In this document: in pieces, positions 22,545 through 22,803 of the stretch
Layout of the letters: each line of letters opens with the position of its first letter
Numbering within the stretch: position 1 is the stretch's first letter
Source of the DNA: Lysobacterales bacterium
Lineage (GTDB): Bacteria > Pseudomonadota > Gammaproteobacteria > Xanthomonadales > SZUA-36
DNA length: 36,655 nt
Direction: 5' to 3'
Assembly (NCBI GenBank): GCA_011524975.1
Contig: WTJD01000006.1
Span: 1 to 36,655, forward strand
Position numbers and translations under genes: made by a program
The notes under the pieces: generated by a model
The model's database searches: none
What the model was told of the DNA's origin: nothing
Seen by the model: only the letters and a program-made list of their open reading frames with translations

Positions 22545-22563
22545 AAATCCAGTGTCCTTAGTT

Positions 22564-22596
22564 AAAAAAAGACAGGCCTCCCAACGGCTGCCTGTC
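22564..22596 (-). terminator. Terminator-like hairpin just before rpsL (possible attenuator)
   Basis: On the minus strand GACAGGC (22596-22590) pairs with GCCTGTC (22577-22571). Inside are a tandem AG/AG mismatch and a CC/GG pair closing a GTTG loop. A run of seven T (22570-22564) follows. This has the form of an intrinsic terminator but lies inside the rpsL leader, 19 bases before the ATG. It may control readthrough into the str operon. No alternative antiterminator pairing was identified. Confidence 0.7.
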
Positions 22597-22600
22597 GCAG

Positions 22601-22620
22601 GGTTTGTCCAAAAACAAACC
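22601..22620 (-). other. Leader stem-loop upstream of the rpsL attenuator
   Basis: GGTTTGT (22601-22607) and ACAAACC (22614-22620) form a perfect 7-bp stem with a 6-base loop, four bases upstream of the terminator-like hairpin in the direction of transcription. It could be a regulatory partner of that hairpin or simply part of the leader fold. Confidence 0.6.
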
Positions 22621-22636
22621 CCCTAGCAATGTCAAA

Positions 22637-22672
22637 CGCCCAACCCGGGTTGACTTAAACCTGGATTGGGCG
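22637..22672 (-). repeat. Long inverted repeat in the rpsL leader
   Basis: The arms CGCCCAA (22637-22643) and TTGGGCG (22666-22672) continue inward on both sides to give a 15-position stem with one mismatch, one G-T wobble and a 6-base loop. In RNA this would be a very stable hairpin in the middle of the str leader. No T-run follows on either strand, so termination is unlikely. It could be a protein-binding or RNase III site. Confidence 0.65.
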
Positions 22673-22735
22673 CCCATGAATCCGGCCCACGCGCCGGCGA
22701 CATCGGCTCTCCGGAACAGACTTTTTTCTGCCCGG

Positions 22736-22751
22736 CCCTCCTTCGGGAGGG
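22736..22751 (-). other. Stable short hairpin near the 5' end of the str leader
   Basis: CCCTCC (22736-22741) and GGAGGG (22746-22751) form a perfect 6-bp GC-rich stem. The loop is TTCG on the plus strand and CGAA on the minus strand. It lies about 20 bases downstream of the predicted transcription start and could protect the 5' end of the message. On the plus strand no T-run follows it. Confidence 0.55.
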
Positions 22752-22774
22752 ATTGCTATTCACTTAGCTGGACA

Positions 22775-22803
22775 ATTATGACAGGAAAAATCTGCCCAGG
22801 CAA
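22775..22803 (-). promoter_or_regulatory. str operon promoter (extended -10)
   Basis: On the minus strand an extended -10 element TGTCATAAT has its hexamer CATAAT at 22780-22775. A -35-like TTGCCT (22803-22798, four of six consensus bases) lies 17 bases upstream. The site is just downstream of the rpoC terminator, so str transcription can start independently of rpoBC. The predicted leader to rpsL is about 220 bases. Confidence 0.65.

What the first reader, a model, noticed from the sequence alone, without database searches (positions are those of the whole stretch)
22545..22803. Terminator-like hairpin inside the rpsL leader
The str operon has its own promoter (22775-22803) and a leader of about 220 bases. 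The leader ends in GACAGGC/GCCTGTC followed by seven T, only 19 bases before the rpsL start. A strong intrinsic terminator in front of an essential operon implies conditional readthrough. The E. coli str operon is known for S7 control between rpsL and rpsG, not for a leader attenuator. I could not find an antiterminator pairing.
Basis: partly seen in the sequence, partly recalled or inferred. Interest (0 to 1): 0.62.

Follow-up and report, generated by a model that had tools for sequence, protein, structure and literature searches.

The report
Conserved structured RNA leader before rpsL
The terminator-like hairpin in front of the ribosomal gene rpsL is real and old, and in this family of uncultured gammaproteobacteria it sits behind a previously undescribed, strongly conserved structured RNA that in this species probably forms the start of the message for several essential translation genes.

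Summary
A 7-bp GC-rich stem (22596-22571, minus strand) is followed by T7 and lies 19 bases before the rpsL ATG. Every other family sampled in the order has a hairpin plus U-tract at this place in at least one member, and E. coli has an analogous one. It corresponds to predicted 'rpsL-leader' attenuators (Naville & Gautheret 2010; Rfam RF01773), so it is not new in itself.

In most relatives the hairpin lies 8-16 nt behind the -10 of a promoter P2 (TTGACA-17-TAGAAT), at the mRNA 5' end. The window's species lacks that -10 (TTTGGA; its genus-mate has it). P2 was lost several times in the family, and the hairpin plus U-tract usually stayed.

The new part lies between the upstream promoter P1 and the hairpin: a ~150-nt structured RNA with an almost invariant ~30-nt block and compensatory base-pair changes. 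It occurs once per genome, always before rpsL, in 26 of 27 family genomes with rpsL found. It matches no Rfam family; elsewhere I saw only one diverged relative.

No conserved antiterminator was found. Best reading: a str-operon leader whose terminator is read through partially or conditionally, with the conserved RNA as probable binding domain. That function is inferred.

The parts
22845..22875 (-). rpoC terminator: GGCCCGGAGCCGGCTGGTTCCGGGCC + T5; separates rpoBC from the str leader
   Evidence: read directly; also in genus-mate L051
22775..22803 (-). promoter P1, TTGCCT-17-TG.CATAAT; predicted start near 22768-22769 (GCTAA)
   Evidence: the same TTGC.. -17- TG.CATAAT at a fixed distance from the conserved block in most relatives that carry the RNA
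22620..22768 (-). conserved structured leader RNA (model R1, full-length match, 153.6 bits)
   Evidence: alignment A1, covariation, model and distribution
22736..22751 (-). helix 1, CCCUCC(CGAA)GGAGGG; compensatory changes among relatives
22711..22735 (-). helix 2, CCGGGCAGA...UCUG.U.UCCGG; compensatory changes
22681..22713 (-). near-invariant block CGGAGAGCCGATGTCGCCGGCGCGTGGGCCGGA, with hairpin CCGGC(GCGUGG)GCCGG at 22697-22682
   Evidence: in the diverged relative L029 the stem is CCAGU/ACUGG with the same loop
22627..22705 (-). possible closing helix CGAUGUCG (22705-22698) with UGACAUUG (22634-22627)
   Evidence: changes on one side only, no compensatory change, so weak support
22637..22672 (-). 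helix CGCCCAAUCC...GGGUUGGGCG, followed by UUUG
   Evidence: compensatory changes C-G to U-A at two pairs
22607..22635 (-). remnant of promoter P2: -35 TTGACA (22635-22630) kept, -10 position TTTGGA (22612-22607) degenerate
   Evidence: genus-mate L002 has TTGACA-17-TAGAAT here
22600..22621 (-). hairpin GGGUUUGU(UUUUGG)ACAAACCC where relatives have the P2 -10
22564..22596 (-). terminator-like hairpin GACAGGC...GCCUGUC (-16.3 kcal/mol) + T7
   Evidence: conserved position and form
22170..22544 (-). rpsL (ribosomal protein S12)
   Evidence: 48 of 61 relative genomes matched by this protein
22138..22169 (-). rpsL-rpsG gap of 32 nt; E. coli has 96 nt, holding its S7 site

Best explanation
This is the 5' leader of the str operon (rpsL-rpsG-fusA and onward). 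Shown by sequence: a promoter P1, then a ~150-nt RNA domain conserved in sequence and structure in this bacterial family, then a hairpin with U-tract just before the rpsL ribosome-binding site. In this species the nearer promoter P2 has no recognisable -10, so P1 is the only recognisable promoter in the gap, and the str mRNA would start with the conserved RNA and have to pass the terminator. Inferred: a fraction of P1 transcripts stops at the hairpin, giving a ~200-nt leader RNA, and the rest reads through. Inferred and less certain: the conserved domain sets that fraction by binding a ligand, most likely a protein (S7 or S12, or a factor acting on RNA polymerase), because no conserved base pairing links it to the terminator or to the ribosome-binding site.
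For: Hairpin + U-tract conserved across the order. On a tree of rpoC/rpsL/rpsG/fusA fragments P2 presence needs 5 changes, at least 4 forced by well-supported branches, and the P2-less lineages still mostly keep a hairpin of -14 to -21 kcal/mol plus U-tract, so it is not merely a 5'-end ornament of P2. The RNA domain covaries: 12 pairs and 62 cells with changes on both sides, against 8.0 pairs and 19.4 +/- 4.1 cells in shuffles; sliding the pairing drops paired cells from 95.9% to 53% or less. One copy per genome; in all 27 genomes with a match rpsL follows on the same strand. P1 and the predicted start are conserved with it. The rpsL-rpsG gap is too short for an E. coli-type S7 site, so a control site elsewhere is plausible.
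Against: No transcript data for any of these organisms. No conserved antiterminator. No rRNA mimicry: local alignment scores to 16S and 23S rRNA are no better than shuffles. In a few members the hairpin is weak (L018, L022, L015, L026) or not recognisable (L029). The window's P2 loss rests on one draft genome.
Confidence: 0.5

Rival explanations
1. The hairpin is not a working terminator but a 5'-terminal stem-loop that protects the abundant str mRNA from decay, and the U-rich stretch is a translation enhancer (S1 binding) before the ribosome-binding site.
For: In most relatives and in E. coli the hairpin starts within a few nt of the predicted P2 start. The protective role of 5' stem-loops is established for other mRNAs (own knowledge). 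U-tracts in many relatives are interrupted, e.g. TTTGTTTTC.
Against: P2-less lineages, the window included, would have the hairpin ~170 nt or more from the 5' end and still mostly keep hairpin and U-tract directly abutting. In the window it is followed by an uninterrupted T7.
Confidence: 0.25
2. P1 makes a separate small RNA of ~140-200 nt that ends at the CGCCC...GGGCG hairpin or at the T7 terminator and acts in trans; the str operon is transcribed from another promoter.
For: In the diverged relative L029 the last helix is followed by TTTTT and looks like a strong terminator. The RNA begins at its own promoter and is conserved as a unit.
Against: Always directly before rpsL, never elsewhere. 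In P2-less lineages no other promoter is recognisable in the gap, so str needs P1 readthrough or a promoter I cannot see.
Confidence: 0.15
3. Classical attenuator: an upstream strand pairs with the terminator 5' arm (antiterminator) in one state.
For: In one genus (g9) UUGUY before the small hairpin can pair with GACAG of the terminator (L008, L020, L023). Naville & Gautheret drew antiterminators for other rpsL leaders (PMC2965389).
Against: Pairing partners differ from species to species and the duplexes are no better than shuffled targets.
Confidence: 0.08
4. Ordinary clean-up terminator for readthrough from rpoBC, without regulation.
For: It lies between rpoC and rpsL.
Against: rpoC has its own terminator at 22875-22845, and P1 lies between the two, so the hairpin would stop str transcription itself.
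Confidence: 0.02

Closest known systems
rpsL-leader attenuators (Naville & Gautheret 2010, PMC2965389), Rfam RF01773 rpsL_pseudo
   Same: Terminator hairpin with U-tract just before rpsL. The RF01773 consensus ends in UAAAUU + hairpin + UUUUGUUUU, the arrangement '-10, hairpin, U-tract' seen in relatives here.
   Different: RF01773 does not match the window or its genus-mate at any useful score. The conserved ~150-nt domain is absent from it, and the window's P2 -10 is lost.
E. coli str operon leader
   Same: Hairpin GCGTCCTCATATTGTGTGAGGACG + TTTTATT directly after the str promoter -10, before rpsL.
   Different: Leader of only tens of bases, no upstream RNA domain; known control is S7 binding in the 96-nt rpsL-rpsG gap (PMC10931766), which is 32 nt here.
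Ribosomal-protein leaders (e.g. Eckert & Weinberg 2020, PMC7247131)
   Same: Lineage-restricted structured RNA before a ribosomal-protein operon.
   Different: No rpsL/S12 leader seen among the 20 candidates in that paper's main text. No ligand shown here and no rRNA mimicry.
Processive antitermination RNAs (HK022 put, Bacillus EAR; own knowledge)
   Same: Structured RNA at or near the start of the transcript that would let polymerase pass downstream terminators without pairing to them.
   Different: Pure analogy; no sequence match and no functional test.

Membership tests
Intrinsic terminator | GC-rich hairpin directly followed by a U-tract | tested here: met
   -16.3 kcal/mol stem with T7 directly abutting
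Intrinsic terminator | RNA 3' ends at the U-tract | not testable with these tools
   no transcript data for the organism
rpsL-leader attenuator in the sense of Naville & Gautheret | terminator between promoter and rpsL start, close to the ATG | tested here: met
   19 bases before ATG, ~170 bases after P1
rpsL-leader attenuator in the sense of Naville & Gautheret | alternative antiterminator structure | tested here: not met
   no partner conserved among 23 leaders; duplexes not better than shuffles
Rfam RF01773 rpsL_pseudo | covariance-model score at or above the gathering cut-off (70 bits) | tested here: not met
   no match in G000, G001, G020; only a 32.8-bit match in G056 of another family
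E. coli-type S7 autogenous site | extended rpsL-rpsG intercistronic region that S7 binds | tested here: not met
   gap is 32 nt, against 96 nt in E. coli
Ribosomal-protein leader | conserved RNA structure supported by covariation, before an r-protein operon | tested here: met
Ribosomal-protein leader | binding of the encoded protein, or rRNA mimicry | tested here: inconclusive
   no sequence mimicry of E. coli 16S/23S; binding not testable here
Leader-peptide attenuator | conserved short ORF in the leader | tested here: not met
   ATG in the conserved block opens MSPARGPD.., but the start is lost in L016, a stop follows at once in L027/L028, and the end is unconserved

The most novel reading that the evidence does not exclude
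The conserved RNA is a new class of riboregulator for the str operon, either a new ribosomal-protein-binding leader or a processive-antitermination RNA that acts on RNA polymerase at the start of the transcript so that it passes the terminator, and it allowed repeated loss of the nearer promoter P2.
Probability: 0.15. Interest if true: 0.8.

Novelty: new variant of a known kind. Interest (0 to 1): 0.5.

Why it matters
The str operon encodes S12, S7 and EF-G among others, and its control is well studied mainly in E. coli, where S7 acts between rpsL and rpsG. Here that site has no room, and a different, strongly conserved RNA stands at the start of the operon. It offers a concrete, testable candidate for a new control element of core translation genes in a family known mostly from metagenome-assembled genomes. 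It also shows that some published 'rpsL leaders' may span the promoter itself (RF01773 contains a -10-like TAAATT right before its hairpin), so antiterminators drawn upstream of that point may not be transcribed.

Tried and rejected
Antiterminator search: folding of nascent leaders and duplex prediction of the core against the terminator arms in 23 species gave no recurrent partner. Sequestration of the ribosome-binding site by the core: none conserved. rRNA mimicry: no better than shuffles; 16S of this family could not be fetched, so E. coli 16S/23S and a family 23S were used. Leader peptide: rejected. Known Rfam families: none in the window or in 40 other loci, apart from a group II intron fragment elsewhere. 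Other copies in the genome: none. The consensus promoter/terminator scanner has little power here (5 terminators found, 5.3 expected). Literature: no paper found on this RNA; searches for 'rpsL leader', Term-seq plus rpsL and Woeseia plus rpsL; no P. aeruginosa rpsL mention in the 3'-end mapping paper's main text. The NCBI or GTDB name of the family was not determined; the matching named records are marine or sediment-type MAGs labelled Lysobacterales, Xanthomonadales, Chromatiales or Oceanospirillales.

Full report
Anatomy. All coordinates are on the minus strand. rpoC ends at 22900 and is followed by its own terminator (22875-22845). P1 is TTGCCT-17-CATAAT at 22803-22775, the predicted start is near 22768, and rpsL begins at 22544. 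The leader folds at -104.9 kcal/mol, z -5.9.

The hairpin in relatives. I collected rpsL upstream regions from 61 genomes. Every family of the order other than the window's own has at least one member with a hairpin plus U-tract before rpsL, mostly GACAGG...CCTGTC followed by TTTGTTTTC or similar (L034 and L043 were read by eye because the script picked other sites). Where promoter P2 (TTGACA, 16-18, TAGAAT-like) was found, the hairpin starts 8-16 nt behind its -10, so it would be at the very 5' end of the mRNA. E. coli shows the same arrangement. Rfam RF01773 also contains -10-like TAAATT, hairpin and U-tract in that order. So the hairpin belongs to a known, widespread kind that Naville & Gautheret and, before them, Merino & Yanofsky predicted as attenuators (PMC2965389). 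In enteropathogenic E. coli a condition-dependent premature 3' end of rpsL in stationary phase was supported by northern blot (PMC10687069); I do not know whether it lies at this hairpin.

Loss of P2. In the window the -35 of P2 is intact but the -10 position reads TTTGGA, and a small hairpin occupies the site; the genus-mate L002 has TAGAAT. On a tree of rpoC, rpsL, rpsG and fusA fragments the P2 label needs 5 changes, at least 4 forced by well-supported branches. All outgroups have P2, so I read these as losses. P2 calls for L002, L015, L036 and L043 were made by eye, and the tree is a quick one with several long branches. P2-less lineages mostly keep a hairpin and an abutting U-tract; L018 and L022 are weak and L029 has none that I recognise. 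This argues against a role tied only to the 5' end of P2 transcripts.

The conserved RNA. Between P1 and the hairpin, genomes of this family carry a ~150-nt element with an almost invariant block CGGARAGCCGATGTCGCCGGCGCGTGGGCCGGA. In 24 distinct sequences the proposed helices are 95.9% paired; 12 pairs show changes on both sides, with 62 such cells against 19.4 +/- 4.1 in shuffles. Support comes chiefly from helices 1 and 2 and partly from the CGCCC...GGGCG helix. The invariant hairpin and the closing helix CGAUGUC/GACAUUG do not covary within the family; the diverged relative L029 keeps the loop GCGUGG with a changed stem (CCAGU/ACUGG), while its closing helix is not kept. A covariance model finds the element in 27 of 299 genomes of the order, all in the window's family, once each, and always with rpsL next on the same strand. 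In the family it is present in 26 of the 27 genomes in which rpsL was found; G002 lacks it. L029, in another family, is a weak match (24.3 bits). Across 368 other genomes sampled from the class there is no match, although that search uses stricter filters and would miss weak ones. Rfam has nothing like it. P1 is conserved together with it and the transcript would start at its GGCUAA.

How it may work. Shown: a conserved RNA with its own promoter directly before a conserved terminator-like hairpin and rpsL; no recognisable nearer promoter in this species; too short an rpsL-rpsG gap for the E. coli S7 site (PMC10931766). Inferred: P1 transcripts carry the RNA into the str mRNA, some stop at the hairpin, and the RNA domain influences how many. 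A base-paired antiterminator is unlikely, since partners differ in each species. A protein ligand or an effect on RNA polymerase is left, and neither is tested. Mimicry of rRNA was not seen and a leader peptide is not conserved.

Verdict. The hairpin itself is a member of a known kind. The leader as a whole is a new variant because of the undescribed RNA domain and the repeated loss of P2. The existence of that RNA is well supported; its function is open.

Noticed in passing
window 31361-31400 (-): Very strong terminator-like hairpin (-28.5 kcal/mol) followed by TTTTGCTT in the rplL-rpoB gap, reminiscent of the partial terminator known there in E. coli.
   Followed up: no
L035, L038, L039, L040, L041, L044, L045: between rpoC and the rpsL promoter: Conserved hairpin CGAAATGAGGC-(ACAGGACG or similar)-GCCTCGTGTTCGG with GGA in the loop, like a CsrA/RsmA site; weak RsmY match in L041. 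No Rfam family covers it at the gathering cut-off.
   Followed up: partly
window 22600-22621 (-), L005: In two lineages that lack the P2 -10 the site is occupied by a near-perfect hairpin (GGGTTTGT..ACAAACCC; GGGGCGGAAATTTCCGCCCTT); relatives with P2 also show dyad symmetry around the -10.
   Followed up: partly
L010, L014, L027 upstream of rpsL: The predicted P2 transcript begins with CGCTCTTTCGACAGG or similar, which resembles the boxA antitermination motif GCTCTTTAACA (read; not tested).
   Followed up: no
L057 84-179 (+): Group II intron D1-D4-3 match next to a str-operon contig.
   Followed up: no
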